Origin: Allorhodopirellula solitaria
GTDB lineage: Bacteria; Planctomycetota; Planctomycetia; Pirellulales; Pirellulaceae
Assembly (NCBI RefSeq): GCF_007859855.1
Contig: NZ_SJPK01000006.1
Location: 277,963 to 341,962, forward strand
Direction of reading: 5' to 3'
Length of the DNA: 64,000 nt
The translations under genes and the position numbers were made by a program. Each line of letters starts with the position of its first letter. The first letter of the stretch is position 1. The notes beneath the pieces were generated by a model. The model saw only the letters and a program-made list of their open reading frames with translations. It made no database searches and was not told where the DNA came from. Below are positions 10,156 through 40,890 of the stretch, one piece after another.

Positions 10156-10399
10156 ATTCCCCACAAACCCGGATCCCCTGTCAGCTTGTCTGACAGGAAT
10201 CTCCATTTTGTGATTAGATAACGATGGGGCATTCACTCCGCTGTCATGCGGGCTTGCCCCGCATGACAGCAAAGTTGATCGACTTGGTTTCCTGTCAGAC
10301 AAGCTGACAGGGGAATGTGTGTCGATACCGCAGTTTTCTAATTTCAAAACGCTGCTTCGGCGTGTGACAAGCACACGGGGGAGCAAACTGGTGGGTAAT
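10156..10399. mobile_element. MITE-like element, copy A (second copy at 40482-40722)
   Basis: This 244-bp non-coding segment is about 85% identical by eye to 40482-40722. It has perfect 25-bp inverted arms at 10175-10199 and 10289-10313. Each arm is itself a small hairpin with an 8-bp stem (CCTGTCAG/CTGACAGG) around CTTGT or ACAAG. Between the arms is a perfect 13-bp stem (10240-10252 with 10258-10270) around CTTGC, and to the right a 6-bp stem (CGTGTG/CACACG, 10361-10377) around ACAAG. It encodes no protein. Mobility is inferred from dispersal. Confidence 0.75.
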
Positions 10400-10572
10400 C
10401 AACAGGTCCTCACCGCCCATCCGGCCAGGAGTCCGGCCCGTTTCGGATTGGCTGTAAGTGGCGCTTTCTTTATTGACTTGGCAAGTTAGAATGAGTGGGT
10501 AAGCAATCCCAGGTGGATTGCCCCTTTTCTTTCATGAACGCTCTCAGCAGCCAAGTCTTCGAAGTAGGAACG

Positions 10573-10854
10573 ATGAAGTCAGTCATTCAGGCCGCGGCCG
10601 TGGTATTTTTGGTTACGCTCGGAAACGTGAGTTTCGCAGACGCTGGAGAACCCGGCTGGTCGCCGGTCATCGTCGCTCGCGGTGAGTATCGCCAACAGAT
10701 TCGGTCGTTGCCAATACAGCAACGTCCTTATCGACCGCTGCACTTCTATGGAAATACCGTGCGGCGGATGCACTATCGCGGCACCCCAGCACCATTGCTT
10801 CGCGAGGTCGCGACGCCCGTCATCGTCCAGCGGTCACGATTCGATACCTGGTAA
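10573..10854 (+). CDS. Small secreted protein of unknown function
   Basis: This 93-residue protein starts with a clear signal peptide (MKSVIQAAAVVFLVTLGN, then VSFADA, cleavage near residue 24). A short, Arg- and Tyr-rich mature part follows (ARGEYRQQIRSLPIQQRPYRP, then HFYGNTVRRMHYRG) and ends in RFDTW. ATG 10573 is preceded by GTAGGAACG, an acceptable ribosome site, and begins exactly at the signal peptide, so it is preferred over the in-frame start 78 bases upstream. No catalytic motif is visible. The basic, aromatic mature chain would suit a cell-surface or matrix-associated role, but that is a guess. It stands alone between two repeat elements. Confidence 0.65.
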   Translation: MKSVIQAAAVVFLVTLGNVSFADAGEPGWSPVIVARGEYRQQIRSLPIQQRPYRPLHFYGNTVRRMHYRGTPAPLLREVATPVIVQRSRFDTW

Positions 10855-10923
10855 GACGGCTATCGACCGAGTGAGCCGAGGCGCGAGACGGGTTGTCGAC
10901 TTATTCGTCGCCGACGAAATAGC

Positions 10924-11260
10924 ATGAAATTCGGGTTCATCCGACGGAAGCGTGCGCAGAGCCCAGCGGAAGGTTTTTTGAGGCATGGCTCTCGTATTCA
11001 ATGATCGTTCACAAATGCGTCCCTGACGAACAAACGCTCGCCAGGGACCGACAACACCATTGGCGTACCGCTTTTGCAGGGAAACGCTGGCGACCGAGAT
11101 ATCCCTTGCCAAGCCAGCACTTCTGCAGAGCTCGGCTCCGTATCTCCCGGCAGTGCCAGTCTAACATTGATAATCACATCCCACAAATAAATCCTTCGAT
11201 ACTGGAGCCATGCCTTGAAAACCTCGGGCGCTCGCTTCCGTCGGATGAGCCGAAATTCAT
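10924..11260. mobile_element. Repeat element with long inverted ends (intact copy; other copy at 28004-28590)
   Basis: The left end (10924-10990) and the right end (11206-11260) are imperfect inverted repeats of 55-67 bp. They share ATGAA at the tip, TTCGG, CATCCGACGGAAGCG and AGGCATGGCT. The interior from about 11011 is nearly identical to the repeat at 28004-28590 (shared blocks such as GCGTCCCTGACGAAC and GCAGGGAAACGCTGGCGACC). It contains the uninterrupted site GAGCTCGGCT at 11128-11137, where the other copy carries an insertion. No credible gene lies within. Confidence 0.75.
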
Positions 11261-11275
11261 AACCCGTGAGTCACC

Positions 11276-12178
11276 TCACTCACTGGGCGCCGACTTTCGG
11301 CTGAGAATCCAATCGGCCAAGCGTGGTGAGATCGCGTCGATGCACATCAGGCATCGCGTCTTCCAGGGGAGGATGATCTCGATCTCACGTTTTTCAATAC
11401 AACGCATGACGGCCTGGGCGACCTCGTCAGGACTGAGTAGTTTGAGCTTGGCACCGCCGCCTGGTTGGGCGGCACTGGCGGGCAATGCTGACTCTTCGGT
11501 GACGCCATAGCGGTTGGGCGGTCGTGAGCTAGCGATGGGGCCGGGGCACACTAAGCCGACATGCACACCCTCGGCTTCGCATTCCAGTCGCATTTGCCTC
11601 GTCATTCCCGCCAACGCGTGTTTGACCGTCACGTATCCTCCCAGATATCGCGGTGCCACCCGGCTGGCCAAGGAGCCAATGTTGACGATCGTTCCATGGG
11701 TTTGCCGTAGACCTGGCAAGCAGGCTTGGCTACCTATCAATGCAGAGATCACATTGGCCTCGAAGAGTTCCCGCAGGGTTTCTGGGTCGAGCTCTTCGGT
11801 GCGACCGCGATCGCTGCGTCCGACGACATTGACGAGAACGTCGATCCTTCCGAATCGACCCATGTGCGAATCGACAGCCGCGTTCAAATCTACTTTCGAA
11901 GTCGCATCGGCAGTGAAAGTGTGCAGCAGCGAGGGGACCGATGAATCGCCGCTGAGCGTCTCGCCGGCGGCAGCGAGACGCTCGCGATCACGGCCTAGGA
12001 TCGTGACGGCATAACCGCGAGCGAGTAGTACGCGGGCGATCGTCAGTCCCAGTCCCGAGGAACCGCCACTGACGATCGCAGCAGCACCGAGCTTGCCGAG
12101 TCTGGGGGTAGGTCGCAGGCCAGTCTCCGCGTGCTCAGCGGTCGCCTCTTGCTGTTCGGTGGGCGGTTTCGGTTGCAT
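11276..12178 (-). CDS. Short-chain dehydrogenase/reductase
   Basis: This is a classical SDR oxidoreductase using NAD(P)H, substrate unknown. Over 300 residues it shows, after a short extra N-terminus, the glycine-rich nucleotide motif GGSSGLG (about 38-44), LVNVVG in place of the usual NNAG (115-120), the catalytic Ser in NIGS (S169) and YVTVK (Y182, K186). The C-terminal part includes LLSPDEVAQAVMRCIEKRE, as in membrane-associated SDRs of the 3-ketosphinganine-reductase or dehydrogenase/reductase type. The first possible start is TTG 12202; ATG 12178 is preferred because only eight codons are lost and no ribosome site favours the TTG. It ends 15 bases after the repeat element at 10924-11260. 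The exact substrate cannot be given. Confidence 0.85.
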   Translation of the reverse strand: MQPKPPTEQQEATAEHAETGLRPTPRLGKLGAAAIVSGGSSGLGLTIARVLLARGYAVTILGRDRERLAAAGETLSGDSSVPSLLHTFTADATSKVDLNAAVDSHMGRFGRIDVLVNVVGRSDRGRTEELDPETLRELFEANVISALIGSQACLPGLRQTHGTIVNIGSLASRVAPRYLGGYVTVKHALAGMTRQMRLECEAEGVHVGLVCPGPIASSRPPNRYGVTEESALPASAAQPGGGAKLKLLSPDEVAQAVMRCIEKREIEIILPWKTRCLMCIDAISPRLADWILSRKSAPSE

Positions 12179-12359
12179 GGAATGATCTGTAGCTCGAAGC
12201 AATTGTCAGGAAGAGGTCCCGTAGGCGGACGCCTAGGGGAAATCAAACGCCGTCAGCGAAGCGGAGAACATTTCGCTCGAGAGATTGCCGCCAGCCTTCG
12301 TTTACACTGTGTTTTCGGTCCGTTTGCGATCCCGACTACTCTCATCGAAAAACTGTTGT

Positions 12360-13808
12360 ATGTCACGCCCACGCTTGAATGAAGCCCGCACGAAAATCGT
12401 TGCCACGGTCGGTCCCGCCTGTGATAGCGTCGACCAGCTCGCTGCCTTGATTGAAGCCGGTGTCGACGTCTTCCGCATCAACAGCGCCCACGGCAGCATT
12501 GAACAGCACGCCGAGAAACTCACCAACATCCGCGCTGCATCGGATCGAACCGGGTTCCCCGCCGGTGTGCTCCTCGATTTGGCGGGCCCCAAGATCCGCT
12601 TGGGGCAGTTGCCTCAGGAACCGCTCGCCTGCCCCCTCGGTGCGCGTTTCGCCTTTGTCCGTGGCGCCGACTCGCAGGAGGAGGGCGAACTGACGAGCAC
12701 CTACCCACGTCTGATCGACGAACTTGAACCGGGCGACCGCGTCATGCTGGCCGACGGTACGGTGGCACTGCAGGTCGAATCGGTCACACCATCGCGAGCC
12801 GAATGTGTGGTCGTGGCTGCGGGGGAAATTCGCAGCCGCCAGGGTGTCAATCTGCCGGGCGTCAAACTGTCTGTCGCGGCGATGCTGCCCAGCGATATCG
12901 AGAACGCGATCTGGGCCGCCCAGCACGAAATCGATTTCATTAGCCTCTCGTTCGTTCGCACCGCGGAGGACGTACGCAGCCTCAAGGATCTGCTCAATAG
13001 CTACGAATGCCAATCTTTGGTCATCGCTAAGATTGAAAAACCGGAAGCCCTCGATAATCTCGAGCGAATCGTGCAAGAGGCCGACGGCATCATGGTCGCC
13101 CGCGGAGACCTCGGGGTCGAGATCGATGTCGCCGAAACCCCTGTTGCTCAGAAACGAATCATCGCGACGTGCAAACGGTTGATGAAACCGGTCATCGTGG
13201 CCACGCAAATGCTCGAGTCGATGCACCACAGCGTGCGGCCGACACGCGCCGAGGCTTCCGATGTCGCCAACGCGGTACTCGATGGCGCCGACGCCTGCAT
13301 GCTCAGTGGCGAGACCGCCATCGGCAGCTACCCGAGAGAGAGCGTGGCGACGATGGACCGGATCATGCATAAAACGGAGGAGAGTATGCCCCGGGGGCTG
13401 AGTGCATCCCCTGGAAATCACGACGAGCTGTATCGTCAAACCCAAGCCGTTACACGGGCGGGGATGGAGGTCGCCGAGGCACTCGGCAGCAAACTCATCA
13501 CGATCGCCACGCACAGTGGCGGTACGGCATGGGTCAAGAGTAACACCCGGTCGCTGATCCCGACGATCGCCGTCAGCGATCACTTGGCATCGGTACGACG
13601 AATGAACCTGTTTTGGGGAATCGAGCCAATATTCTGTGAGGATATCGCCGATACCGCTCATCTGATCGAGCAAGTCACGCGGTGGGCCTGCGAGCAAACT
13701 GAGAATGGTCAACGGGTCATCCGCCCCGGCGATACCATGGTGGTTGTCAGCGGCAGCGATGTGGTCGAGGGTGCCGATAACGTGATCTCGGTCCACACGC
13801 TTTCCTAG
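12360..13808 (+). CDS. pyk: Pyruvate kinase
   Basis: Catalyses phosphoenolpyruvate + ADP to pyruvate + ATP, the last step of glycolysis, in the cytoplasm. The 482-residue length is normal. Family motifs appear in order: TKIVATVGPA at the start, FRINSAHGS, LLDLAGPKIRLG, DFISLSFVR, the catalytic Lys region IAKIEKPEA, the metal and substrate motif IMVARGDLGVE, ATQMLESM and MLSGETAIGSYP. The C-terminal regulatory domain is present and ends VVSGSDVVEGADNVISV. ATG 12360 is chosen because MSRPRLNEARTKI is the usual N-terminus; an in-frame ATG at 12285 would add 25 residues unlike the family. It is divergent from the SDR gene with about 180 bases between them, and stands as a single gene. Sequence and frame are intact, and the assignment is firm. 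Confidence 0.97.
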   Translation: MSRPRLNEARTKIVATVGPACDSVDQLAALIEAGVDVFRINSAHGSIEQHAEKLTNIRAASDRTGFPAGVLLDLAGPKIRLGQLPQEPLACPLGARFAFVRGADSQEEGELTSTYPRLIDELEPGDRVMLADGTVALQVESVTPSRAECVVVAAGEIRSRQGVNLPGVKLSVAAMLPSDIENAIWAAQHEIDFISLSFVRTAEDVRSLKDLLNSYECQSLVIAKIEKPEALDNLERIVQEADGIMVARGDLGVEIDVAETPVAQKRIIATCKRLMKPVIVATQMLESMHHSVRPTRAEASDVANAVLDGADACMLSGETAIGSYPRESVATMDRIMHKTEESMPRGLSASPGNHDELYRQTQAVTRAGMEVAEALGSKLITIATHSGGTAWVKSNTRSLIPTIAVSDHLASVRRMNLFWGIEPIFCEDIADTAHLIEQVTRWACEQTENGQRVIRPGDTMVVVSGSDVVEGADNVISVHTLS

Positions 13809-14030
13809 TCAGCCGATCCCAAACGGGGCGAATCCGCTTCCGAACTCGGTTAGAGGAAAGCGAGGGTTATGGCAGAATCCCGCAAACAGGCAACTCAAAA
13901 ACGCTGCCGCGGCGCCAGCAAGATCGCCATTTACGAGCTGGCCGGCGCGTGAGGCATTCCAATCTCACCGGGATTGCCCGATACTCTGCCAGCACAGACC
14001 TTTTGTTTTTTCGTTTTGGTTTTCTAAGAC

Positions 14031-15539
14031 ATGTTGGATTCGACGTCGACAATTCTCGAACTTTTGCGATCTGGTGACGCGACAGCGCGCGAGGTGACCG
14101 AGCAAGCGCTGCGGGCGATCGGCGCGACCCAGCCCTCGATCAACGCCTACACGCACGTTGCCTATGACGCGGCCCTGAACGCTGCCGAAGCCGTCGATCG
14201 GGATCGCAAGGCTGGCCGTCCGCTGCCGCCGCTGGCTGGATTGCCGGTCGCGATCAAGGATGTGCTGTGCACCGCCGACATGCCGACAACATGCTCGTCG
14301 AACATGTTGCGAAATTTCACTCCGCCCTACGATGCGACCATCGTCGCGAATCTGAAACGTGCCGGGGCGATCGTGATCGGCAAGACGAACATGGACGAGT
14401 TCGCCATGGGTGCCTCGACCGAAACCAGCGCGATGGGTTTGACTCGAAATCCATGGGACGAAGACCGCACCCCTGGGGGCAGCAGCGGAGGCGCTGCGGC
14501 CGCGGTGGCCTCGGGGACCGTTCCGCTCTCGATCGGGACCGACACCGGTGGATCCATTCGCCAGCCGGCTGCCTTCTGCGGCATCACGGGTTTGAAACCT
14601 ACTTACGGTCGTTGCAGTCGCTTGGGATTGGTGGCCTTTGCCAGCAGCCTCGATCAGGCGGGCCCCTTGGGTTGGTCCGTGGAAGATGTCGCGATCGGAC
14701 TGCAAGCGATGGCCGGATATGATCCCGCCGATAGCACGTCGGTCGATCAGGAGGTGCCCGACCTGCAATCCGCCGTAGCCACCGATAACCTGCAAGGCGT
14801 CCGAATTGGCGTCCTGCGAGATTCCATCGATCAAGAAGGTGTTGCCCCCTCGGTTCGCAAGGCCGTCTCGGATGCTGAAAAAGTGTTCACAGATCTCGGG
14901 GCAGAGATTGTCGAGGTGTCGCTCCGGCACAGCCCTTATTGGGTGCCCACCTACTACGTGATCGCTCCCTGTGAGGCGAGTAGCAATCTGTCGCGTTTCG
15001 ATGGTGCTCACTACGGCCATCGCCAGAGTGCACAGGATGCCGATGGGGCTGTCGACGAATCACTGGCGAAAGCCGAACCGCTCGAGGCCATGTATCGGGC
15101 CAGTCGCGCTGCGGGCTTCGGCAGTGAGGTCAAGCGGCGGATCATGGTGGGTACTTATGCATTGAGCGCCGGGTACTACGACGCCTATTACAATCAAGCC
15201 TTGAAAGTGCGACGCTTGATTCGTGGTGATTACGACACGGCGTTTGAGTCCGTTGACCTGCTCCTCGGGCCCGTGACCCCCTCGCCGGCGTTCGGTTTGG
15301 GTGAAAACATCGACGACCCCATCGCAATGTATTTGTGCGATCTCTTCACCGTCGGCGCCAACCTCGCGGGCGTGCCGGCTCTCTCGTTGCCCGCTGGTGT
15401 CGATGACGAGGGCTTGCCCGTCGGGATCCAACTGCAGGCTCCCGTGATGCAGGAAGCCAAACTCATTGCCGCTGGGGCTGGGTTTCAGTCCAAGACCGAG
15501 TACCATCGCTTGCGCCCGAGCGGATTCATCGTATCGTAG
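14031..15539 (+). CDS. gatA: Aspartyl/glutamyl-tRNA amidotransferase subunit A
   Basis: GatA is the amidase subunit of GatCAB, which releases ammonia from glutamine to convert Glu-tRNA(Gln) (and often Asp-tRNA(Asn)) to the amide form. The 502-residue protein shows the amidase-signature catalytic triad: Lys in VAIKDVLC (K76), the cis-Ser in GGSSGG (149-154) and the nucleophile in TDTGGSIRQPA (S175). GatA-type sequence continues (FCGITGLKPTYGRCSR, DQAGPLGWSVEDVA, YYLIAP-like YYVIAPCEASSNLSRFDG). ATG 14031 follows an A/T-rich stretch (14003-14025) without a clear ribosome site. gatB and gatC are not in the window, so subunits are encoded at separate loci, which is common. It is convergent with nagA, 71 bases apart. 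Confidence 0.96.
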   Translation: MLDSTSTILELLRSGDATAREVTEQALRAIGATQPSINAYTHVAYDAALNAAEAVDRDRKAGRPLPPLAGLPVAIKDVLCTADMPTTCSSNMLRNFTPPYDATIVANLKRAGAIVIGKTNMDEFAMGASTETSAMGLTRNPWDEDRTPGGSSGGAAAAVASGTVPLSIGTDTGGSIRQPAAFCGITGLKPTYGRCSRLGLVAFASSLDQAGPLGWSVEDVAIGLQAMAGYDPADSTSVDQEVPDLQSAVATDNLQGVRIGVLRDSIDQEGVAPSVRKAVSDAEKVFTDLGAEIVEVSLRHSPYWVPTYYVIAPCEASSNLSRFDGAHYGHRQSAQDADGAVDESLAKAEPLEAMYRASRAAGFGSEVKRRIMVGTYALSAGYYDAYYNQALKVRRLIRGDYDTAFESVDLLLGPVTPSPAFGLGENIDDPIAMYLCDLFTVGANLAGVPALSLPAGVDDEGLPVGIQLQAPVMQEAKLIAAGAGFQSKTEYHRLRPSGFIVS

Positions 15540-15582
15540 CGAGTGTTGCTCCCTATCGAACGCAGGGTGCTTTCGCCAGTGG

Positions 15583-15610
15583 GTGTGGCCGGTAGGCACC
15601 AGCCCTGCGG
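15583..15610. repeat. Single REP-like hairpin related to the 104-bp array
   Basis: The sequence GGCCGGTAGGCACCAGCC in the gap between gatA and nagA resembles the first hairpin of the array unit at 9387 onwards: the same left stem GGCCGGT, a four-base loop and ACC, with one changed pair. Lying between converging genes, it may also act as a bidirectional transcription end, though no T-run is present. Confidence 0.45.
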
Positions 15611-16861: not shown

Positions 16862-16868
16862 CGCGGCA

Positions 16869-18817: not shown

Positions 18818-19018
18818 GGGAGCTTCGGTTTATCGATGGATGAGAATCGTAGTGAAACTCAGCTACCGAATTGCCGCAGATGGGCGGAAGTGCCCTTGGC
18901 ATCTGCACAGCCAATACCGATTGCCGAGTTCTCGCAAGTATAGCTTGCTCACAGCGAAACGCACCTTTTCTCGCAGCGGTTCTGTCAACACAGCTGCAAA
19001 TCAGCCCCGGGAGATCCC

Positions 19019-27975: not shown

Positions 27976-27977
27976 TC

Positions 27978-28003: not shown

Positions 28004-28590
28004 TCTAGTATCCAATAATCTTACAAGAATGCGTCCCTGACGAACGAATGCCCGCCAGGGACCGGCAACACCATTGGCGTACCGCTTTTGCAGGGAAACG
28101 CTGGCGACCGAGATATCCCTTGCCAAGCCAGCACCTCTGCAGAGCTCGGCTTGAATGGCGTGGACTTAAGCAGATTTACTCGAGTTTCACGGGCATCTGT
28201 TTTCGCTTCCGTCCGGCTTGTCCGGGCGGAGTGGCAACTGCAAGCTACCTGCAAAACGCCCTCGCCAGATCGATCTCCGCTCCGGGCTTGTCCCGGCGGA
28301 ATCAGCGAGTCAAGTCGTGTGACCGCCGGGGCAAGCCCGAGACGGAGCACCGTTTCGACTTCGCATTTTCTCGGTAGCTGCCAGTTGGTTCCTCCGCCGA
28401 GACAAGCTCGACGGAAGGATGTTTCAGCAGGCGGCAATCGCTTATGTCCACGCCATTCGAGCTCGGCTCCGTTTCTCCCGGCAGCTCCAGTCTAACATCC
28501 ACTATCACATCCCACAAATAAATCCTTCGATACTGGAGCCATGCCTTGAAAACCTCGGGCGCGCGCTTCCGTCGGATGAACCATTAGTTT
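28004..28590. mobile_element. Repeat element, second copy, left-truncated and interrupted by an insertion
   Basis: The sequence matches the element at 10924-11260 in two blocks: about 28004-28151 and 28459-28590. The left inverted end found in the other copy is missing. The two blocks are separated by a 307-bp insertion, after which homology resumes exactly at the duplicated site. The shared right part includes CATCCCACAAATAAATCC and the GCCATGCCTTGAAAACCTCG stretch. No gene is visible in this copy. Confidence 0.75.
28152..28458. mobile_element. Inserted 307-bp non-coding element with 18-bp inverted ends and target duplication
   Basis: The ends GAATGGCGTGGACTTAAG (28153-28170) and CTTATGTCCACGCCATTC (28441-28458) are inverted repeats with one mismatch. 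It is flanked by direct copies of GAGCTCGGCT at 28142-28151 and 28459-28468, which occurs once, uninterrupted, at 11128-11137 in the other copy of the host repeat. One extra T (28152) leaves the exact left border uncertain. Inside are four short hairpins with CTTGT-, ACAAG- or GCAAG-type loops (28208-28230, 28276-28300, 28327-28339, 28393-28415). It has no coding capacity, so it would need a transposase in trans. Confidence 0.85.
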
Positions 28591-28618
28591 CGCCAAGCTG
28601 GCATCACCGATTGCGAAG

Positions 28619-28792
28619 ATGGCGGCGGAAATCGCCAGTCACCTCAACACATCGAGTGCTCAACTGGTGGATTTTTTCAATCGGCTCATCTCCCGCGTCC
28701 GACGTCGTTGCCAAAGGACCAAACGCAAGGCAAAACCAGGAACAATTGAGTTGCTCGCCAACCCAAACCTCCTCGAGTACTGCTTAACTTGA
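28619..28792 (+). CDS. Possible small protein or gene remnant
   Basis: A 57-codon frame starts at ATG 28619 (MAAEIASHLNTSSAQLVDFF) and continues with an Arg/Lys-rich stretch (RVRRRCQRTKRKAKPGTIEL), ending ANPNLLEYCLT. The composition is protein-like and the frame is open for a further 11 codons upstream, so it may be the 3' part of a gene whose beginning was lost to the repeat element on its left. No family is recognised. It could also be chance, since the surrounding 970 bases are repeats. Confidence 0.25.
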   Translation: MAAEIASHLNTSSAQLVDFFNRLISRVRRRCQRTKRKAKPGTIELLANPNLLEYCLT

Positions 28793-31125: not shown

Positions 31126-31227
31126 GGCGAGATTGGTGGCTTGGTTTTGGAAAAAACGGAGAGAAATGCGAGACGGGTGCGAAGAGAGTATGATCGTTTT
31201 GACGCGATCCACAAAGATGAGGGAAAA

Positions 31228-32103: not shown

Positions 32104-32106
32104 ATC

Positions 32107-32325
32107 CTATTCAGCGCCCGTCCAATACGTGATCAATCCGGTCAAAAACCAAAACAGACCGGCGATCCCGACGAGCACCGTCCAAATCCAGACCAAGCCT
32201 AAGAAGTAAGCCGTCCCCGCCGTTGAGATAACCCCGATCAGGAACAGCGGCCCGCCCTGCCACATTTTGGCAATGGCACGATCCTTGGGCGATGGTCCTT
32301 CGAGCCAGGGTTTATTGCTAGACAT
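32107..32325 (-). CDS. Small two-helix membrane protein
   Basis: A 72-residue protein with a short polar N-terminus (MSSNKPWLEGPSPKDRAIAK) and two hydrophobic helices (about 24-45 and 48-67: GPLFLIGVISTAGTAYFLGL and WTVLVGIAGLFWFLTGLITY). It ends TGAE. It is convergent with the DUF1080 gene, whose stop is only 3 bases away. No family is recognised; the two helices with almost no loop are typical of small inner-membrane proteins of unknown role. Confidence 0.65.
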   Translation of the reverse strand: MSSNKPWLEGPSPKDRAIAKMWQGGPLFLIGVISTAGTAYFLGLVWIWTVLVGIAGLFWFLTGLITYWTGAE

Positions 32326-32541
32326 CTGGTTGGAAACTCGGCTGACGGACTCTGGGGAGGTTTCTTACGAGTGAAATCGCCATAATCTTCGCATCTTCTC
32401 ATCCATTGGGCAAATAGTTGCAGAAAATTTGCGGCTGCCGAAGCAAACCGGGATGCGGATCGACTACCCTTTCATCTATAGGGTGGGTGTCTGCCCCTCC
32501 TTCTGTGTTGTGTTCAGTTGGTGGTCAGAGAAGGTTCGGCA

Positions 32542-35500
32542 ATGAAAGATTCAGTTGAGCAGGCAGCAAGTTCGGAGAAGCGAGCGAAGGCTCCCGAGCA
32601 GTGGCGGCAAGATGAGTGGGAGTGCGTCAAGCGGCGGAGGGAACAGGCATTCCCCAGCGCGAATGCCGATCACCCGGGGACACCGGGTGAAGAGCCGAGA
32701 AACTTGACGGGATTGGCATTGTCCGGTGGTGGGATTCGGTCGGCGCTCTTCAACGATGGATTTCTGCAGGCGTTGTCACATCGAGGCTTGCTGCGCTACG
32801 TCGACTTTCTGTGCAGCGTTTCAGGAGGTGGCTACATTGCGGGGCACCTGACGTCACAGAGTGATAGCGAGTCGGAACAGTGTTTTCACGACGACCCGAA
32901 GCGTCGCGATCTCGGTCGGGATCCTGAAACGGGGGAAACGAGACGACACCGGTTGCCAGGCATTGGCGGATACCTCAGTCGTCCACTTGAGTTCATACCC
33001 GCCTATCTCTGGTCACTTTTCTTTTCGCTCGCATTCTATTTCGGTGCAATCGGGATCGTCGCGACGCTCGCCGCGTTGCTATGGCGTTCGTTTGACAGTT
33101 TCGCGTTTCGCGGAATCTATGACAAAGCTCTCGGCTTGAACCAGTATGGCGATGAACTGACAATTGCTTTCCTGCCCGCATTCATTCTGATCGCATTCAT
33201 GGTCGCCGGCGAGATTGGATTGACGTTTTGCCGGTTTTCATCCCAGGTGCTCAACGAGCGATTGCTTTCGTTTCATCGTCGATTCCGAGCGACCATGTTG
33301 CTAGGAATCGTGTTCGCGTCCTTGACATCGATCGCGATTTTTCTCGGAAATGGAAAATCGTTCGTCCGAGATGGAAGCGATACGCTCTATCTGAATCGAT
33401 ACGTTCAATATTTTGCCATCCTCGCTGGGACGATCCAGGTCCTGGTCTTTCTCGGTCGAGACCGATTGTTTCGGTCCGAACGCGGCGAAGCAAAGAGTTG
33501 GCAACGCTACGCTCAACAATCGGTCACGACCATGGTCGTCGTGACTCTGGTGTTTTCGATGGTTCATTGGATGGGACGCGAGAATATCAGTGGTTACACC
33601 GAACACCGCGACCCTCATCTGGTTGTTGGTGATGTTCTCGATTGGCCGCGGTTCACTGAGATTAGCAACACCTACCAGTCCGCAGATCCAGGCGACGCGA
33701 CGCCTGAAGGCGAAGATTCTCCTGCGACAGGTGGCGGAAAGGGAGTTGACTCAGCCGATGAAAAAATCCAGCCTCCCGGATCGTGGCACGGCGCGGTGGT
33801 GCGTTCCCGAATCAATCTTTTCGGAATGGACCGCGTTGCCGACGGAATCGTTGACCCGAATATCGAGAGTTCGCTATCCGAACCTCCACCGCCTGACGTT
33901 ATCACCTATCGCGATGCCATCAAATCGGCGGACGATGAGGATCATGCCGGCCCCTGGTTGCTACCCACTCGGATCCTTGCGGCGGCACACGGTTACTGGC
34001 GGTCGATTATGCGTCCCATCAAACAAGACAACGTAGAGGACGCGGGCAAACCGGAGTCGTCGTCCATCCAAGCAACTGTGAATAGGTTGATCGCAGACAA
34101 TCACAAAATTCGTGTGTCGAGAGCGGAGTCGCTCAAAGGCTTCAACACGAACCTAGAATCGGTAGCGTTCACCTATTTCTTGCTAGCGCAGCTCGTTTCT
34201 CGAGACAATGATTCACGCGAAAACAATCGAGATTGGCAGTCTGCGATCACATCGGAAAAGAAGGACGAATTCTTACGCGTGAATGAACTGGTCGACTCAG
34301 GGCTCCTCAGGGTTAACAAGCCCCAAGCAGAGCAACTCGCGACCTATTTTCATAGCCTCCAGCTTCGGCACCCGGACGTAGAATCGGCCAATGACGGTGC
34401 TCTCAACAATGCTCGCGATGCCACCTTTGCCAATCGTATGTTGCTTGAAGGGCTCTATCCGAAGGTGGTCCAGCGATATGACATTCCCAGTACACTCGTG
34501 GTGCCACCTCATGACCAGCAAACCCGGAAGCGATGGTTGCTCGGCTGGACTCTGCTGATGCTGACAGGGTTACTTGGCGGACTCGGGCCACGACGAGTGG
34601 CAACCGTGTTCCATTTTTATCGTCGCCAACTTGCATCCAATTTCTTGGTGCCTACCGAATCCCCGGGCAAGCGGTACGGAGATCGCCGGCTGAGCGAGCT
34701 CGATCCCTGTCGCGACGGATTGCCTTATCCGTTGATTCTTGCAGGTGCGTTGAAACCTTCCCTGGTCAATGGCAGCTACCGGGTTGCGGCGCGTCCGTTC
34801 GTCTTCAGTCCCAAGTATTGTGGATCGTTTGAAGAGCGAGAGACCCCGATCGATAGCCACCAGGTGAGCTTTTCCGGCAGCCCGCACGGGCCACCATTGA
34901 CACTCGCTGATGCCGTGACACTCTCCGGTGCAGCGGTAACACCTTTAATGACGCAGAACCGCTGGCTGACGATCATCCTCGACTTCTTCAACACCGGAAT
35001 TGGTCAACGTGTTCGCCGTACTGACCGGACCGCGGCGACTTCCTCTCCCGCCAACAATCACCCGTGGATTCTATCGCTATCGGCCGCCGCGTTGGTCGGG
35101 GGGGTGTGTTGGGAATTCGTTGGTTTGCGATGGTCACTGCTATTAGTAATGCCGACGACAGCATTGTTTTGGTACTGCTGGTGCTTTCAGATCGGATCGC
35201 CCGGTTGGATTCGCTCTCTTTGCTTTCCGAAGGACAGCTACCACGAGCCCGAATTCAACCAAAATCAATCCTTCTATGTCGCCGACGGCGGCTATGTCGA
35301 TTACCTCGGCGTCAGCGAATTGCTGCGGCGACGGTGCGAGACGATCGTCGTCAGCGATGCGGGCGCGAACGTGGGTGGTAACTCGCTCGGGACCCTGGCG
35401 ACGATGTGCGAACGCGCCGCGCAGGAACAGGGTATCCGATTCCTCGATCTCGACCACGAAGCCCCGATCGACTTTGGGCGTCTCGAGATCAATCAAGAGA

Positions 35501-36996
35501 GCCGGCTCGTGCATCAACCGTTTCTGTGCATGCGGGTCCGGTACCCCGAACCCGAGCGCCCCGAAGCACTATTGGTTTATTGCCAGATGTCGATCACGTC
35601 GTCCGACCCGATCGAGATTCAGAATATCCGCAATCTGTTTCCTTCGTTTCCTGACGAACCGACGGTGAACCAGTTTTACAACGAGAAACAGGTCGCTGCC
35701 TACCGATCGTTGGGATACCACATCGGCTCGCGTTTCTGCAGCGAACTGTATCCATGGTTCAACAACCACCCGGAGTCGTGGATGTTCAAGAGCCCTCCCA
35801 AAAATCGATCGAGAAAGGGCAAGGCTCCGGTGGAGGACAAGGGGTCCACAGGCAAATTCACCGCTGGCGATGAGGCCGCCTCGCAGAAGCACGAACTCTT
35901 TCAAGCGACCTTGCGCGATGGAGTCGCTGAACATGATTCAATCAAGCGACTGCCTATGTGCCAGCCGCTGTCGAGTATTCTCCGCGAGCGTTTGCTTACC
36001 TCGTACCGGTTGGCGTGTTACCACGAGGTGACCTACCACAAGGATGATATCTTCGCCGAAGCCATCTGGACCGACGGCGCATTTGCATGCCCAACGTTGG
36101 CTCAGGAGATTAAGGGATTTCTCGAATTGCCCAGCACGAGTCGTGAGCTGGCCAACAAATGGCTCAAACGCTACGAATGCAATGCCGACTTGAGGAGCGT
36201 TTATCGCAAGGCGGTGATCGAAGACACCAATTCGCTCGGCGTCTTATTCGAGTCCTATTGTGGAGCCCTGTGGTCGAGGATGATCGCCGATGCCAAGGTG
36301 CCTCGTGGGAATCCGGATGCGCAAGTGGCCCGGGTCGCGGCGCACCTGACCTGCATCGCGGCGGCTTGTCAGGAGGTCCACCAGGGCCGTCCCAGCGCTG
36401 TATTCCAGGTGGGCGGGCGCAGCAAGTTGATCGATCTGTGCTGGCAAATCGCCCAAGGCATTGTCGAAACCGCTCCCAAGCAGGCGGGCTACTTCGATAT
36501 CAACCAACTATTCCGTGATATGGATAGTACGATCGCAGAGCTGATCGAGATGGAACGCTCTGTGTTCCAAGGAGGCGAGCATGTTGCAACAATCTCATTC
36601 GCGCAGTGCATGAGCACCGCTTGGGGAAAGCTAGCTCACGATGCTCCCGAAGGCCCCGTCAATGTCGAAGAACTCGCCATCACCGAGCGGCTCTTTCTTC
36701 CCGATGGTGTGCTCGGGACATTCGAGCAACGGGGGATCACCGAGCGTCAATCGATCGATAGCATGTCGCTGATGACGGCGGAGATCCGCCACCAACTCGA
36801 CGTTGGGATGAGAGAGATCCGGCTCAAGGAGATACGACACGCGCTCGCAAAATCATGGTTCCTCGGATTCTGCCCCGTCCAACAGCAGCGGCTGCTCAAG
36901 GAACTCGAAACGATACCCGACGAGTCCGAAAAAGAACGGGAAACTGAAATCCTTGCTAAAAAGATCGTGACTGCCATACTAGCGAGCCTCGACTAG
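32542..36996 (+). CDS. Giant membrane-embedded patatin-like phospholipase
   Basis: Patatin-like lipases hydrolyse acyl esters with a Ser-Asp dyad. Here the oxyanion and nucleophile part lies near the N-terminus: LALSGGGIRSALFNDGFLQA (oxyanion loop at 62-67) and LCSVSGGGYIAG (GxSxG-type nucleophile near 95). The catalytic Asp motif FYVADGGYVDYLGVSELLRR comes only near residue 913. The intervening 800 or so residues hold at least six hydrophobic segments, grouped near 155-330, 660-690 and 840-880, and a long hydrophilic stretch. About 570 residues of unknown function follow the Asp. ATG 32542 is chosen because AGAGAAGG lies nine bases upstream; a TTG at 32518 and a GTG at 32521 are alternatives. 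An ABC ATPase gene follows 45 bases later. Enzyme class is well supported; substrate and topology are inferred. Confidence 0.85.
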   Translation: MKDSVEQAASSEKRAKAPEQWRQDEWECVKRRREQAFPSANADHPGTPGEEPRNLTGLALSGGGIRSALFNDGFLQALSHRGLLRYVDFLCSVSGGGYIAGHLTSQSDSESEQCFHDDPKRRDLGRDPETGETRRHRLPGIGGYLSRPLEFIPAYLWSLFFSLAFYFGAIGIVATLAALLWRSFDSFAFRGIYDKALGLNQYGDELTIAFLPAFILIAFMVAGEIGLTFCRFSSQVLNERLLSFHRRFRATMLLGIVFASLTSIAIFLGNGKSFVRDGSDTLYLNRYVQYFAILAGTIQVLVFLGRDRLFRSERGEAKSWQRYAQQSVTTMVVVTLVFSMVHWMGRENISGYTEHRDPHLVVGDVLDWPRFTEISNTYQSADPGDATPEGEDSPATGGGKGVDSADEKIQPPGSWHGAVVRSRINLFGMDRVADGIVDPNIESSLSEPPPPDVITYRDAIKSADDEDHAGPWLLPTRILAAAHGYWRSIMRPIKQDNVEDAGKPESSSIQATVNRLIADNHKIRVSRAESLKGFNTNLESVAFTYFLLAQLVSRDNDSRENNRDWQSAITSEKKDEFLRVNELVDSGLLRVNKPQAEQLATYFHSLQLRHPDVESANDGALNNARDATFANRMLLEGLYPKVVQRYDIPSTLVVPPHDQQTRKRWLLGWTLLMLTGLLGGLGPRRVATVFHFYRRQLASNFLVPTESPGKRYGDRRLSELDPCRDGLPYPLILAGALKPSLVNGSYRVAARPFVFSPKYCGSFEERETPIDSHQVSFSGSPHGPPLTLADAVTLSGAAVTPLMTQNRWLTIILDFFNTGIGQRVRRTDRTAATSSPANNHPWILSLSAAALVGGVCWEFVGLRWSLLLVMPTTALFWYCWCFQIGSPGWIRSLCFPKDSYHEPEFNQNQSFYVADGGYVDYLGVSELLRRRCETIVVSDAGANVGGNSLGTLATMCERAAQEQGIRFLDLDHEAPIDFGRLEINQESRLVHQPFLCMRVRYPEPERPEALLVYCQMSITSSDPIEIQNIRNLFPSFPDEPTVNQFYNEKQVAAYRSLGYHIGSRFCSELYPWFNNHPESWMFKSPPKNRSRKGKAPVEDKGSTGKFTAGDEAASQKHELFQATLRDGVAEHDSIKRLPMCQPLSSILRERLLTSYRLACYHEVTYHKDDIFAEAIWTDGAFACPTLAQEIKGFLELPSTSRELANKWLKRYECNADLRSVYRKAVIEDTNSLGVLFESYCGALWSRMIADAKVPRGNPDAQVARVAAHLTCIAAACQEVHQGRPSAVFQVGGRSKLIDLCWQIAQGIVETAPKQAGYFDINQLFRDMDSTIAELIEMERSVFQGGEHVATISFAQCMSTAWGKLAHDAPEGPVNVEELAITERLFLPDGVLGTFEQRGITERQSIDSMSLMTAEIRHQLDVGMREIRLKEIRHALAKSWFLGFCPVQQQRLLKELETIPDESEKERETEILAKKIVTAILASLD

Positions 36997-37041
36997 CCGC
37001 TCTTCGACGAGCTCAATCGCGAATCCGAATTCAGAGACCTC

Positions 37042-37737
37042 ATGAACGATAACCCTGTCTTGCTATCTGTTGAAGACGTTTCCAAAGAGTACCCCGACGG
37101 CAATGTGCGAGCGCTCGACGGGGTTAGCTTTGAGATAACAACCGGCGAGTATGCAGCGATCATGGGGCCCAGCGGCAGTGGGAAATCGACACTGCTGAGC
37201 ATTCTCGGCACACTCGACCGGCCCACTTCGGGCACACTCACTTTCGAGGGGGCGGTGGTCGATGAAAAGACGGATCTCGATGAGCTGCGCTCGCGTGCGA
37301 TCGGCTTTGTCTTTCAATCCTTCTACCTGCTACCGACGTTGACGGCGTTGGAGAACATTCAAGTTCCGATGTTTGGCCGCGGCATGACGGTGGCCGAGCG
37401 AGTGGCGAAGGCGCACGAGCTGATCGAGGCGGTGGGGATGGCCGATCGCTCAAAACACTTGCCCAAGCAGCTATCGGTCGGCCAGCGGCAGCGTATCGCG
37501 ATCGCCCGTTCGCTCGCCAATGATCCCCGATTGTTGCTCGCCGATGAACCGACGGGTAACCTAGATACCGTCACTGCAGCAGGGATATTGGAACTGTTCG
37601 AGCAATTGCACACCGAGCGTGAGATGACCCTCATCACGGTCACTCATAGTGAGGAGGTCGCCCACGCCGCCCAGCGAGTGATCCGGATGCGAGATGGTCG
37701 TATCGAATCGGACCAATCCAATCTCGCTATGAATTAA
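37042..37737 (+). CDS. ABC transporter ATP-binding protein (MacB/LolD type), no permease nearby
   Basis: ATPases of this type drive lipoprotein-sorting or MacB/FtsX-like permeases. The 231-residue protein has Walker A GPSGSGKST (43-51), the Q-loop region VFQSFYLLPTLTALENIQVP, signature LSVGQRQRIAIARSLA (from about 144), Walker B LLLADEPTGNLD (about 163-174) and the switch His in LITVTHSEEVA. The signature Gly is followed by Gln and Arg as in the LolD/MacB subgroup, but the usual LSGGQ is LSVGQ, a substitution at the second signature position. No permease or periplasmic partner lies on either side (patatin gene upstream, sulfatase downstream), so it is an orphan ATPase unless it serves the membrane part of the patatin protein. 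Confidence 0.9.
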   Translation: MNDNPVLLSVEDVSKEYPDGNVRALDGVSFEITTGEYAAIMGPSGSGKSTLLSILGTLDRPTSGTLTFEGAVVDEKTDLDELRSRAIGFVFQSFYLLPTLTALENIQVPMFGRGMTVAERVAKAHELIEAVGMADRSKHLPKQLSVGQRQRIAIARSLANDPRLLLADEPTGNLDTVTAAGILELFEQLHTEREMTLITVTHSEEVAHAAQRVIRMRDGRIESDQSNLAMN

Positions 37738-37795
37738 AATCTGATTCGAAATGGTTACTGTTGTGAACTCGGTTTTTTGCAAATATTGGATAAAC

Positions 37796-39352
37796 ATGAT
37801 ACTCTCGGTTCCCCCCTTTCGACGGCCCTGGATGTCCGGCCTCCTCACCGCCCTGATGATCGGTGTGCTCTCCACACCAGGACGGGCGGAGGTGGCTCAG
37901 GAGGCTTCCGAGCCAGCGAAGCGACCCAACATCCTGTTCATTTTGGCGGATGACCAATCTCCGTTCGACTTGAAGGTTTACAACCCCAATTCGATTCTCG
38001 ACACGCCGAATCTGGACCGGTTGGCGAGTGAAGGAGTCGTGCTCGATGGTGCCTACCAGATGGGCTCTTGGTCTGGCGCCGTGTGCACTCCATCCCGGCA
38101 CATGATCATGAGCGGGCGAACCGTTTGGCATCTTCCCGGTAGCACCCCCAAGGCGAAGGACAAAGCCGCCCGACCCAATGAGGCTGAGCTGATTCCGAAG
38201 AACCTCGCCGATCAAACGTTGGCGGCGGTCTTCAACCGGGCGGGCTACGACACGATGCGAACTTGCAAACGTGGCAATAGCTACAAAGCTGCCAACCAAA
38301 AGTTCACGGTGGTTCACGAAGCGGTGAAACGCGGGCCCACCGACGAAACCGGCAGTGCCTGGCACGCCGACCGAGTGCTGGATTATCTGCAACAACGCGA
38401 GGTCGATGAGGATCGAGATCCGTTCTTGATCTATTTCGGATTCTCTCACCCGCACGATACTCGTGACGGCAAATCACATCTCAACGAAAAGTATGGGGCC
38501 GTCAATCATACCGACCGCAACTCTCTCCCCCCGGCCAACGACAAACAGCCGCAGTTGCCGGTCAACTATCTCCCCGAACACCCCTTCCCACATGGCCATC
38601 CCAATCTGCGCGATGAGGTCGCCGTTTCAGGCGTGTGGAAGCGGCGTGACGAACGCACCATCCGCAATGAGATCGGCCGCGAGTTCGCGTGTAGTGAAAA
38701 CATCGATATTCAGATTGGCCGCGTATTGGAGAAACTCGAACAGCTCGGCGAACTGAATAATACCTACATCGTCTACACCGCCGACCACGGAATGGCGATC
38801 GGCCGACATGGCCTGCAGGGTAAACAGAACCTCTATCAGCATACCTGGCGAGTCCCATTCATCGCCAAAGGCCCCGGGATCCCCGCCGGGACACGCGCGA
38901 TCGGCAATACCTATCTGCTCGACACACTCGCGACGCTATGTGACCTCGCTGGCGTCGAGACGCCAGCGACGAATGAGGGGATAAGCTTTCGTAAGGTTCT
39001 CCAAGGTCAGCAATCGACGATTCGTGACACGCTCTTCGGCGTGTACTGTGGCGGGACCAAACCCGGGATGCGGTGCGTCAAGAAAGGCGACTGGAAATTA
39101 GTCAAGTTCGATGTCTTGAACGGGAAAGTCCGTAAAACACAGTTGTTCAATCTGAAGGAGAACCCGCACGAGTTCCTCACTCAACACCACGATGAGAATC
39201 TTAGCGACGAGTTGGGCATCTCTCCGACAGCCGATCAGAGAAATCTTGCCGACGATCCACGTTTTGCTGAGAAGCGTGCCGAACTCGAAGCCCTGCTATT
39301 ATCAGAAATGGTCCGATTGGACGATCCGTACCGGCTTTGGGACCAACCATAA
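37796..39352 (+). CDS. Secreted sulfatase, Cys-type formylglycine enzyme
   Basis: Arylsulfatase-family enzymes hydrolyse sulfate esters of carbohydrates in a calcium-dependent reaction using a formylglycine made from Cys. The protein (518 residues) has a signal peptide (WMSGLLTALMIGVLSTPGRA), the N-terminal metal motif RPNILFILADDQ (about 43-54) and the modification site AVCTPSRHMIMSGR, with Cys97 in C-x-P-S-R (the anaerobic- or FGE-modified type). Catalytic blocks follow: DRDPFLIYFGFSHPHDTRDG, YIVYTADHGMAIGRHGLQGK (metal Asp-His) and VPFIAKGPG. ATG 37796 is preferred over 37751 because it starts at the signal peptide. It lies 58 bases after the ABC gene. Sulfatases are a planctomycete hallmark; the formylglycine maturase is not in the window. 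Confidence 0.93.
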   Translation: MILSVPPFRRPWMSGLLTALMIGVLSTPGRAEVAQEASEPAKRPNILFILADDQSPFDLKVYNPNSILDTPNLDRLASEGVVLDGAYQMGSWSGAVCTPSRHMIMSGRTVWHLPGSTPKAKDKAARPNEAELIPKNLADQTLAAVFNRAGYDTMRTCKRGNSYKAANQKFTVVHEAVKRGPTDETGSAWHADRVLDYLQQREVDEDRDPFLIYFGFSHPHDTRDGKSHLNEKYGAVNHTDRNSLPPANDKQPQLPVNYLPEHPFPHGHPNLRDEVAVSGVWKRRDERTIRNEIGREFACSENIDIQIGRVLEKLEQLGELNNTYIVYTADHGMAIGRHGLQGKQNLYQHTWRVPFIAKGPGIPAGTRAIGNTYLLDTLATLCDLAGVETPATNEGISFRKVLQGQQSTIRDTLFGVYCGGTKPGMRCVKKGDWKLVKFDVLNGKVRKTQLFNLKENPHEFLTQHHDENLSDELGISPTADQRNLADDPRFAEKRAELEALLLSEMVRLDDPYRLWDQP

Positions 39353-39579
39353 TCCGGCCCGAAACGCACCCCCGCGTCGCGACGATTGACCTCGTCGCGG
39401 CCCTGTCGATCTTCGCCCAAATTGCCCAACCCGACCGAGTCGGATCGGGTTCGAGTGGGCATGGGAAAGATTCCGAAGAGAATCCTTAGTGAGGCGACAC
39501 GCACATCATCACGATCGAGGATCCACTGCGTCTCAGCTTCGTTTGTCTCGTGGGAGCGACTGTTCAGGGTGCGACGCCA

Positions 39580-40311
39580 ATGTCATTGAGAAAACTTTGG
39601 AATTCACTTCGCGGCGGCAGCAGCGAAACGAAGTCCCCCGCCCAGCCCAGTGCGGTTACGCCTGATGTGTCGAGCGATGCTGCGTCATCATCGCCACGGC
39701 CGGTTAAAGTTCCGGCTGAACAACCGCGGGCTGCCAAACCAGTGCGGACTGCCCCGTCAGTAGCGGCCAGCACAACGGCGAAGGTTGCTCCGGCCACCGA
39801 GCCGGTAGCGGAGACTACGCCCGCTCGCCGCGGTGTCTTGTCGATGCTCTCGCGTGGTGAGAACGATGCGTTGATCAAGCAATTCGGGCGAGCCAATCCA
39901 TCCAGTATTTTGGAGATTGGCATCGGCAACGGTTCGAGAATGCCCGCCATCCTTGCCTCGGTGACCCAATCGGGGACCGAATCGAGCAAATTCAAAGCGA
40001 TCGTGATCGATGAATTCGAGATGGCAGGCGGCGAGGTCACGATGCGGGACTACCACCGGCAATTGGCGGGACTGCCGATCCGCCCGGTAATCTTTCCAGA
40101 ATCGGTGACGCGGGGGCTGGTCAATGTCGCCCATCGCTTTGGAGCCGTTGACATGATCCTCATCGATTCCAGTGTCGAATCGGCTCACGCCGAGGGATTG
40201 GCGAAGTATCTCGGCAAAGTAACGCACGCCGATACCGTCGTGCTGAGCAACGCGGCAGGTAAGTGGGGCGTTCGTCCGACCCACGAAGAATCGGTACGCC
40301 GCGCAGCCTAA
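39580..40311 (+). CDS. Methyltransferase-like protein with disordered N-terminus
   Basis: In this 243-residue protein the first 85 or so residues are low-complexity (Ala, Ser, Pro, Thr, Val, as in SSPRPVKVPAEQPRAAKPVR) and probably disordered. From about 88 a Rossmann-like domain begins: the SAM-binding-like strand and glycine loop SILEIGIGNGSRM (109-121), then FKAIVIDEFEMAGGEVTM with an acidic residue after the second strand, VTRGLVNVAHRFGAVDMILID and HADTVVLSNAAGK. The layout fits a class I methyltransferase or a related oxidoreductase-like fold, but the catalytic part is short. ATG 39580 is used; 10 upstream in-frame codons from 39550 look non-coding. It lies 228 bases after the sulfatase, with an imperfect hairpin between them. 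Confidence 0.65.
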   Translation: MSLRKLWNSLRGGSSETKSPAQPSAVTPDVSSDAASSSPRPVKVPAEQPRAAKPVRTAPSVAASTTAKVAPATEPVAETTPARRGVLSMLSRGENDALIKQFGRANPSSILEIGIGNGSRMPAILASVTQSGTESSKFKAIVIDEFEMAGGEVTMRDYHRQLAGLPIRPVIFPESVTRGLVNVAHRFGAVDMILIDSSVESAHAEGLAKYLGKVTHADTVVLSNAAGKWGVRPTHEESVRRAA

Positions 40312-40370
40312 GCATCGCGTGATCACTGAGTGGCGAATTCTGTGAGAGCTCTTCTTTCGGCGTTCTTGAG

Positions 40371-40890
40371 CCCCAACGGGTAACGCTGTGAAGTGATTTT
40401 CAGGTGTGTGCGGTGGGGACGCCCGCGAACCGGTGCGAGCGAGTGATCAATGTCGTATATGTCGAGGCGGGCGAGCTGTTGATTCCCCACAAAACCCGAT
40501 CCCCTGTCAGCTTGTCTGGCAGGAATCTCCGTTTTGTGATTAGAACGATGGAGCGTTGCCCCCGCTCCCATGTGGGCTTGCCCCGCATGAAAGCAAAGTT
40601 TGTCGGCTTGGTTTCCTGCCAGACAAGCTGACAGGGGAACGCGTATCGATGCCGCGGTTTTCTAATTTCAAAACGTCGCTTCCCGTGTGACAAGCACACG
40701 GGGGAGCAAACCTGTGGGCAATCCATACGAGGCAACGAGTCGTTTCGCTTTGCGTGATCGATTGGCTTTGAGGGCCTCGTCGCCTCGTCCACTACAGAAA
40801 AGGTTTCCCAAAATTCGCCACTTATTCATCACGCGATGCTTAACAGCTCGTTTTCGCGAAAAAAATGCTTCACAGCGTTGCCCGTTGGGG
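40371..40890. mobile_element. Outer inverted-repeat element (520 bp) containing the second MITE-like copy
   Basis: CCCCAACGGG, then a variable base, then AACGCTGTGAAG at 40371-40393 recurs inverted at 40868-40890 (22 of 23 positions). Between them lies the MITE-like copy B (40482-40722), preceded by a unique stretch (about 40394-40480) and followed by a dispersed block shared with 28793-28945. The outer ends may mark a composite of nested insertions. No flanking duplication is seen. It lies between the methyltransferase-like gene and bioD and contains no gene. Confidence 0.6.
40482..40722. mobile_element. MITE-like element, copy B
   Basis: This 241-bp segment corresponds to 10156-10399 over its whole length. 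The 25-bp inverted arms (40501-40525 and 40613-40637) remain perfectly complementary to each other, although one base pair of each arm differs from copy A. The centre stem around CTTGC at about 40567-40591 is weaker than in copy A. A perfect 8-bp stem CCCGTGTG/CACACGGG around ACAAG lies at 40682-40702. It is non-coding. Confidence 0.75.

What the first reader, a model, noticed from the sequence alone, without database searches (positions are those of the whole stretch)
10175..40702. Hairpins with a constant CTTGT/ACAAG loop but unrelated stems in two mobile-element families
At least ten short hairpins in the repeat islands share the same five-base loop, CTTGT (or its complement ACAAG, or CTTGC/GCAAG), while the stems differ. 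They lie at 10177-10197, 10240-10270, 10291-10311 and 10361-10377 (MITE-like copy A); 40503-40523, 40615-40635 and 40682-40702 (copy B); and 28208-28230, 28276-28300, 28327-28339 and 28393-28415 (the 307-bp insertion). The two element types share no stem sequence. Constant loops on variable stems are the opposite of what drift gives and suggest the loop is read, for example by a single-strand-specific transposase or an RNA-binding protein.
Basis: seen in the sequence. Interest (0 to 1): 0.7.

Follow-up and report, generated by a model that had tools for sequence, protein, structure and literature searches.

The report
Hairpin sites for fused Y1 transposases
Short DNA hairpins with different stems but nearly the same tip sequence flank genes for an unusual two-in-one single-strand transposase in several Planctomycetes bacteria, so the tip is probably what the enzyme reads.

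Summary
Two repeat families (A, two copies; B, one) each carry four hairpins, forward-forward-reverse-reverse, with CTTGY/RCAAG tips, unrelated stems and nearly equal spacing. A 400-kb sample of the genome shows no excess of this loop outside these elements. The hairpins track a gene instead: a Y1 (IS200-like) transposase of two fused domains, the first keeping the catalytic Tyr/Gln, the second the HUH histidines. In 27 loci fetched by protein, C-YY-G(Y) tips are 94 of 158 hairpins near the gene and 13 of 192 farther off; 19 ordinary Y1 loci show 4 of 60. Among 1016 pentamers CTTGC and CTTGT, with complements, rank first. Two later loci fit, one partly through TTCAC tips. The genome has two open fused genes; A halves resemble the flanks of one, B halves those of the other, and not the reverse. 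Best reading: tips are single-strand recognition sites of this fused Y1 family, and A and B carry gene-less copies. Against a pure Y1 story, A and B have terminal inverted repeats and 11-bp target duplications, as DDE-type elements do. Binding and cleavage are untested.

The parts
10150..10405 (+). family A element, copy 1 (256 bp between terminal inverted repeats; left end degraded; no target duplication at 1 mismatch or less)
10177..10197 (+). A hairpin H1, loop CTTGT
10240..10270 (+). A hairpin H2, loop CTTGC, 13-bp stem
10291..10311 (-). A hairpin H3, loop ACAAG (CTTGT on minus strand); inverted copy of H1
10361..10377 (-). A hairpin H4, loop ACAAG
40476..40728 (+). family A element, copy 2, nested in other inverted repeats
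40503..40523 (+). A copy 2 H1, loop CTTGT (one T-G pair)
40569..40589 (+).
40615..40635 (-). A copy 2 H3, loop ACAAG
40682..40702 (-). A copy 2 H4, loop ACAAG
28153..28458 (+). family B element (306 bp), flanked by an 11-bp target duplication with one mismatch (GAGCTCGGCTT / GAGCTCGGCTC)
28208..28230 (+). B hairpin H1, loop CTTGT
28276..28300 (+). B hairpin H2, loop CTTGT, bulged stem
28327..28339 (-). B hairpin H3, loop GCAAG
28393..28415 (-). B hairpin H4, loop ACAAG

Best explanation
The hairpins are single-strand recognition sites (ends) of a family of IS200/IS605-like Y1 elements whose transposase is a tandem fusion of two Y1 domains. The N-domain keeps the Tyr and Gln and has lost the HUH histidines; the C-domain keeps HUH and has lost the Tyr helix. 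One chain therefore carries what looks like one composite active site, like one of the two trans sites of an IS608 TnpA dimer (that comparison is recalled). The enzyme most likely binds the hairpin as folded single-stranded DNA and reads the tip C-YY-G plus, usually, one more pyrimidine, while the stem is free to change as long as it pairs and differs from element to element. The gene-bearing element is typically FF-gene-RR. Families A and B are gene-less FF-RR versions related to the flanks of two fused Y1 genes elsewhere in the same genome. SHOWN: tip enrichment beside the genes, the protein family, the similarity of A and B halves to one gene's flanks each. INFERRED: binding, tip reading, cleavage, and that the enzyme ever moved A or B. 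A and B as whole units were probably moved by a different, target-duplicating transposase, with the hairpin core as passenger or captured ends.
For: 27 protein-selected loci not used in discovery: C-YY-G(Y) tips in 94 of 158 hairpins within 600 bp and 13 of 192 farther (p 4e-28); 62 CTTGY tips with 21 different 8-nt arms; 19 ordinary Y1 loci 4 of 60 near, 4 of 100 far. All 32 loci: 111 of 185 against 14 of 231. Blind ranking of 1016 pentamers in the 32 loci: CTTGC 51/127 and CTTGT 33/96 of occurrences lie between paired arms, all pentamers 619/68844. Two later loci from other families: L294 FF-gene-RR with CTCGC, CTCGT, CTCGC, CTTGC; L295 CTTG tips on one side, TTCAC on the other. Three more fused loci outside the 32 (L242, L245, L252) have such tips. 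Spacing of neighbouring tips 65-76 bp in 25 of 41 pairs. Protein: Y115, Q119, H206 invariant in 25 sequences, the second His missing in one; C-half matches TnpA residues 4-77 and N-half 87-136 in PDB profiles; model pLDDT 92.5, pTM 0.89, Foldseek hits IS200, ISDra2, IS608 and RAYT structures. A halves align with the own C10 flanks and not C25, B halves with C25; in each cognate pair 0 of 200 shuffles reach the score. Precedent: a Marinomonas TnpA-REP selects T, T and A at positions 1, 2 and 4 of a TTTA loop, 1 and 4 presented as paired (PMC8266576, passages).
Against: A and B carry terminal inverted repeats and 11-bp target duplications (17 of 26 A copies, 13 of 17 B copies with both ends found, from 30 and 20 loci given), not a Y1 signature. 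The A terminal repeat occurs 122 times in the genome at up to 1 mismatch, also on repeats with no such hairpin. 8 of 15 genomes with model hits have no detected fused gene. Fused genes are rare: 8 of 60 relatives, 3 of 149 in a phylum sample, own genome counted in both. An ordinary-type Y1 remnant, L189, left out of the 19 because only a 19-aa piece is open, lies beside a B copy and has 2 tips in 4 near hairpins; ordinary L105 has two CTTGT hairpins about 1.3 kb off. Tips vary, and the T:A form of the 1:4 pairing has weak statistics (p 0.03 and 0.09). Only 4 of 32 loci are exact FF-gene-RR by the automatic call. Sequence similarity between the protein halves is weak, and Foldseek also lists unrelated ferredoxin-like folds.
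Confidence: 0.78

Rival explanations
1. The tips are shared only by descent: A, B and the hairpins beside the genes are copies of one ancestral palindromic element whose stems drifted, with no reading of the tip.
For: Halves of A and B align over 98 columns; A resembles the C10 flank, B the C25 flank. H1 and H3 of A are inverted copies of each other.
Against: Stems changed by paired substitutions while the tip stayed (21 different arms with CTTGY). Drift should hit an unpaired tip at least as fast. Similar tips recur in other planctomycete families and beside the fused but not the ordinary gene.
Confidence: 0.12
2. A and B are ordinary DDE-type miniature elements and the hairpins act in themselves, for example as terminators or transcript stabilisers, the link to Y1 genes being incidental.
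For: Terminal repeats and 11-bp target duplications. Hairpins face both ways in each element.
Against: Does not predict the same tips beside fused Y1 genes or the pairing of A with C10 and B with C25 flanks. No Rfam family reaches its gathering score in the window. Terminator activity was not tested.
Confidence: 0.07
3. An RNA-binding protein or a kissing-loop interaction (CUUGY against RCAAG within one transcript) keeps the loop constant.
For: Each element carries both complementary loops on one strand. Own reasoning; no call tests it.
Against: The complementary loops follow from the inverted layout alone. CTTGY or CTCGY tips sit beside TTCAY or TTTAY tips in some loci (L206, L207, L209; L295), which would not pair fully with each other.
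Confidence: 0.03

Closest known systems
TIRtron / TIRYT (Di Nocera 2013, PMC3733652, passages read)
   Same: Y1-like gene flanked by inverted repeats that in some species also occur as dispersed families; the paper notes a plethora of tyrosine transposase genes and flanking repeats in R. baltica and some self-complementary repeats.
   Different: Here the protein is a two-domain fusion with the catalytic residues divided between the halves, Pfam shows no HTH domain, and the shared feature is the hairpin tip. Their figures and supplements were not seen, so overlap of individual repeats is not excluded.
RAYT / TnpA-REP with REP hairpins
   Same: Y1 fold, hairpins in inverted pairs and arrays, high-copy gene-less derivatives; loop positions that matter to the enzyme are documented for Marinomonas (PMC8266576, passages).
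   Different: No conserved GTAG foot, NCBIfam REP_Tyr_transpos far below cut-off, fused domains, often two hairpins per end about 68 bp apart.
IS200/IS605 TnpA (IS608, ISDra2)
   Same: Pfam PF01797 in 25 of 25, same fold, hairpins near the gene; base-specific contacts at loop and irregular bases in the known structures (PMC8266576, passages).
   Different: One chain with one apparent composite site instead of a dimer of single-domain chains; catalytic order is Tyr then HUH.
TnpA-Y1 class 3 (Quentin 2018, PMC6006769, one section and passages read)
   Same: Found mainly in Planctomycetes, Acidobacteria and Proteobacteria, flanked by atypical secondary structures, about 600 copies in one genome.
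   Different: Class 3 has Y----Q, a table length of 178 aa and a CnGA foot; here Y---Q precedes HUH in about 262 aa and the foot is Y-N-C-C.

Membership tests
RAYT / REP (REPtron) | GTAG (or near) tetranucleotide at the foot of the hairpin | tested here: not met
   logo of 40 different hairpins: 5' foot Y-N-C-C, no conserved GTAG
RAYT / REP (REPtron) | protein of the REP-associated tyrosine transposase family | tested here: not met
   NF047646 16.4 and 13.2 bits in 2 of 4 proteins, cut-off 80; no match up to E 0.1 in the other 2
RAYT / REP (REPtron) | Y1 gene flanked by palindromes that also occur dispersed in many copies | tested here: met
TIRtron / TIRYT | Y1-like gene flanked by inverted repeats | tested here: met
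   F upstream or R downstream in 68 of 99 hairpins (p 0.0003); exact FF-gene-RR in 4 of 32
TIRtron / TIRYT | C-terminal HTH domain of subclass 2.1, which holds 20 of 26 described TIRYTs (PMC6006769) | tested here: not met
   Pfam on 25 proteins up to E 0.01: PF01797 only, plus one Penicillinase_R
TIRtron / TIRYT | GGGGWSAS motif in the repeats | not tested
   motif known only
IS200/IS605 TnpA | Y1_Tnp domain (PF01797) | tested here: met
   25 of 25 members
IS200/IS605 TnpA | HUH and Tyr in one domain of about 120 aa | tested here: not met
   Tyr/Gln in the N-half, HUH in the C-half, about 90 residues apart
IS200/IS605 TnpA | no target-site duplication | tested here: inconclusive
   A and B have 11-bp duplications; ends of gene-bearing elements were not mapped
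TnpA-Y1 class 3 | Y----Q motif and CnGA foot | tested here: not met
   Y---Q before HUH, foot Y-N-C-C
DDE-type MITE (for A and B as whole units) | terminal inverted repeats and constant-length target duplication, no gene | tested here: met
   11-bp duplication in 17 of 26 A and 13 of 17 B copies
DDE-type MITE (for A and B as whole units) | autonomous partner IS with the same ends | tested here: inconclusive
   none recognised in 20 loci with the A terminal repeat, but reading frames were listed in one only

The most novel reading that the evidence does not exclude
A planctomycete lineage of single-chain, two-domain HUH transposases with one composite active site (Tyr from one half, HUH from the other) reads a common apical code, a YYYR turn with positions 1 and 4 paired plus, usually, an extra pyrimidine, on hairpins whose stems serve as a freely changing, element-specific address.
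Probability: 0.4. Interest if true: 0.8.

Novelty: new variant of a known kind. Interest (0 to 1): 0.62.

Why it matters
It ties a large set of palindromic repeats in Planctomycetes to a specific enzyme and gives a testable rule for how it finds them. A natural single-chain version of the IS200/IS605 dimer with one apparent active site would let cleavage and strand transfer be studied one site at a time. It also offers a nearly constant loop on changing stems as a recognisable sign of a single-strand-reading enzyme.

Tried and rejected
Loop enrichment in the 400-kb sample: none visible outside the elements. Rfam at gathering scores: no family in the window. Pfam on seven ORFs near the elements: no mobility gene. 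GTAG foot: not conserved. Ordinary Y1 as the partner: not supported, tips no commoner near than far in 19 loci; exceptions L105 and L189 are told under evidence against. At the laxest stem setting (6 of 8 pairs) 10 of 19 ordinary loci also show at least one tip, so presence at that setting proves little and the 7-of-8 setting is used. T:A as a second form of the 1:4 loop pair: weak. hhalign of the two protein halves: 22 columns, E 0.27. A 1.1-kb IS with A ends at C16 looked likely, but the sequence shows no convincing second end. Papers searched for a fused or tandem Y1 transposase and for planctomycete hairpin repeats; nothing in those listings, or in the passages and one section read from PMC3733652, PMC6006769, PMC8266576 and PMC2817692, describes it; figures, supplements and most subscription papers were not seen.
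Full report
OBSERVATION. The hairpins are present at the stated places. Family A is an element of about 253-256 bp at 10150-10405 and 40476-40728; family B is a 306-bp element at 28153-28458. Each has four hairpins ordered F F R R, with CTTGY read on the plus strand for F and on the minus strand for R. Loop centres lie 68/46/68 bp apart in A copy 1 and 70/44/71 in B (counted). In A, H1 and H3 are perfect inverted copies over 26 bp, so within a family not all stems are independent. Between families the stems differ, yet the halves align over 98 columns; 60 of 64 pair cells form a standard pair and 9 of 16 pairs changed on both sides, against 0 to 2 when the partner is slid (only four sequences).

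GENOME SAMPLE. In 400 kb of the same genome, taken from ten contigs at positions I placed without regard to the elements, ACAAG or CTTGC loops do not stand out beyond A- and B-type hairpins. The loop is not a general feature of hairpins in this genome; it belongs to the elements. Those are numerous: 40 scored A matches of 161 candidates, about 20 B copies or fragments, and 150 scored matches, of 1383 candidates, to a covariance model of one half-element, each below E 1e-8.

RELATIVES. The half-element model matched 15 of 60 genomes, own included, at E 0.01, three of them with a single match. Many hits have stems unlike A or B, some in arrays of about 68-76 bp. One genome (G022) also shows TTCAY and TTTAY loops on similar stems, so the loop is not strictly constant.

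THE GENE. Some of these hairpins lie beside genes with mostly weak Y1_Tnp matches. Read in full, those proteins consist of two Y1 domains. A scan of the public genome collection with five of them gave 32 loci, 31 with planctomycete names and one from an Acidobacteria record. In 25 aligned proteins Y115, Q119 and H206 are invariant and the second His is missing in one. PDB profiles match the C-half to the HUH half of TnpA and the N-half to its Tyr half. An AlphaFold2 model of the R. sallentina protein has pLDDT 92.5 and pTM 0.89; its strands and helices repeat one Y1 order twice, without the last helix in the second copy (my reading of the element list). Foldseek finds IS200, ISDra2, IS608 and RAYT structures among its best hits, and also some designed and other ferredoxin-like proteins. 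Sequence similarity between the halves alone is weak.

BLIND TESTS OF THE TIP. The 32 loci were chosen by protein, though the query proteins had been found beside such hairpins; five loci are contigs from that discovery set. In the other 27, hairpins with at least 7 of 8 pairs within 600 bp of the gene carry a C-YY-G(Y) tip in 94 of 158 cases, farther away in 13 of 192 (p 4e-28); 25 of 27 loci have at least one and 20 at least two. Nineteen ordinary Y1 loci show 4 of 60 near and 4 of 100 far. L189, an ordinary-type remnant beside a B copy, was not in the 19 and has 2 of 4. With all 32 loci the figures are 111 of 185 and 14 of 231. Over 1016 pentamers with ten or more occurrences near the gene in the 32 loci, CTTGC (51 of 127) and CTTGT (33 of 96), with their complements, are most often found between paired arms, then CTCGT and CTCGC; the average is 0.9%. 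The 62 CTTGY tips in the 27 loci have 21 different 8-nt arms. Two loci found later in other families fit: one is FF-gene-RR, the other has CTTG tips on one side and TTCAC tips on the other. Three further fused loci outside the 32 (L242, L245, L252) also have such tips; in L242 they are CCCGY and CCTGY. Not every locus is FF-gene-RR: 4 of 32 by a loose automatic call, the rest partial or mixed, but 68 of 99 hairpins have the expected orientation (p 0.0003).

OWN GENOME. Two fused genes with open frames exist, at C25:41687-42466 and C10:155110-155898, neither in the window. A halves score 59-82 against the C10 flanks and 23-33 against C25; B halves score 81-119 against C25 and 34-49 against C10. 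In the cognate comparisons 0 of 200 shuffles reach the score; in the crossed ones 1 to 105 do. In the sample of 60 relatives fused genes occur in 8; 7 of these have model hits against 8 of the 52 others (p 1e-4); this is partly circular, since hits beside the gene count.

AGAINST. A and B have terminal repeats and 11-bp duplications, in 17 of 26 and 13 of 17 copies with both ends found. The same A terminal repeat bounds repeats without these hairpins. So the last mover of A and B was probably not the Y1 enzyme. I read the hairpin core as a captured or hitch-hiking Y1 end pair.

MECHANISM AND PRECEDENT. Published work on a Marinomonas TnpA-REP found strong selection at three positions of a TTTA loop, with positions 1 and 4 presented as paired, and cites IS608 and ISDra2 contacts at loop and irregular bases (PMC8266576, passages). 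The tips here fit such a rule: positions 1 and 4 are mostly C:G, sometimes T:A, and a pyrimidine usually follows. Formal support for T:A as a second solution is weak (p 0.03 and 0.09). Binding and cleavage remain to be shown.

NAMES.

CHANGES ON CHECKING.

Noticed in passing
window 9400-10090: Tandem repeat of about 104 bp built on the palindrome GGCCGGTAGGAACCGGCC, directly beside family A copy 1.
   Followed up: no
window 6327-6351 and 6837-6861; L034 5280, 12519, 12596: Other hairpins with loop ACGAA and stems such as GCGACGCAC; not CTTGY tips.
   Followed up: no
window 40309-40355 with 40796-40842, and 40370-40400 with 40861-40891: Family A copy 2 sits inside two nested larger inverted repeats, probably other mobile elements.
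   Followed up: no
window 28020-28150 and 28475-28790; L081, L083, L085, L086: Family B is inserted in a longer dispersed repeat; other copies carry a related end GAATGGCGTGGACTTAGGG at the same target.
   Followed up: partly
L274 and L275: About 124-bp derivatives of family A with the interior deleted from the H1 tip to beyond H3.
   Followed up: partly
L286, L292: Other miniature elements with the A terminal repeat but no CTTGY hairpin found, in a similar GACGAG-rich target.
   Followed up: partly
L166 (G022:C26): Arrays of hairpins at 68-73 bp with CTTGT and TTCAY/TTTAY tips in a genome with no detected fused Y1 gene.
   Followed up: partly
L231 2492-3481: One member of the fused-Y1 alignment has a Penicillinase_R match (its long C-terminal insert suggests it is L231, not checked singly).
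   Followed up: no
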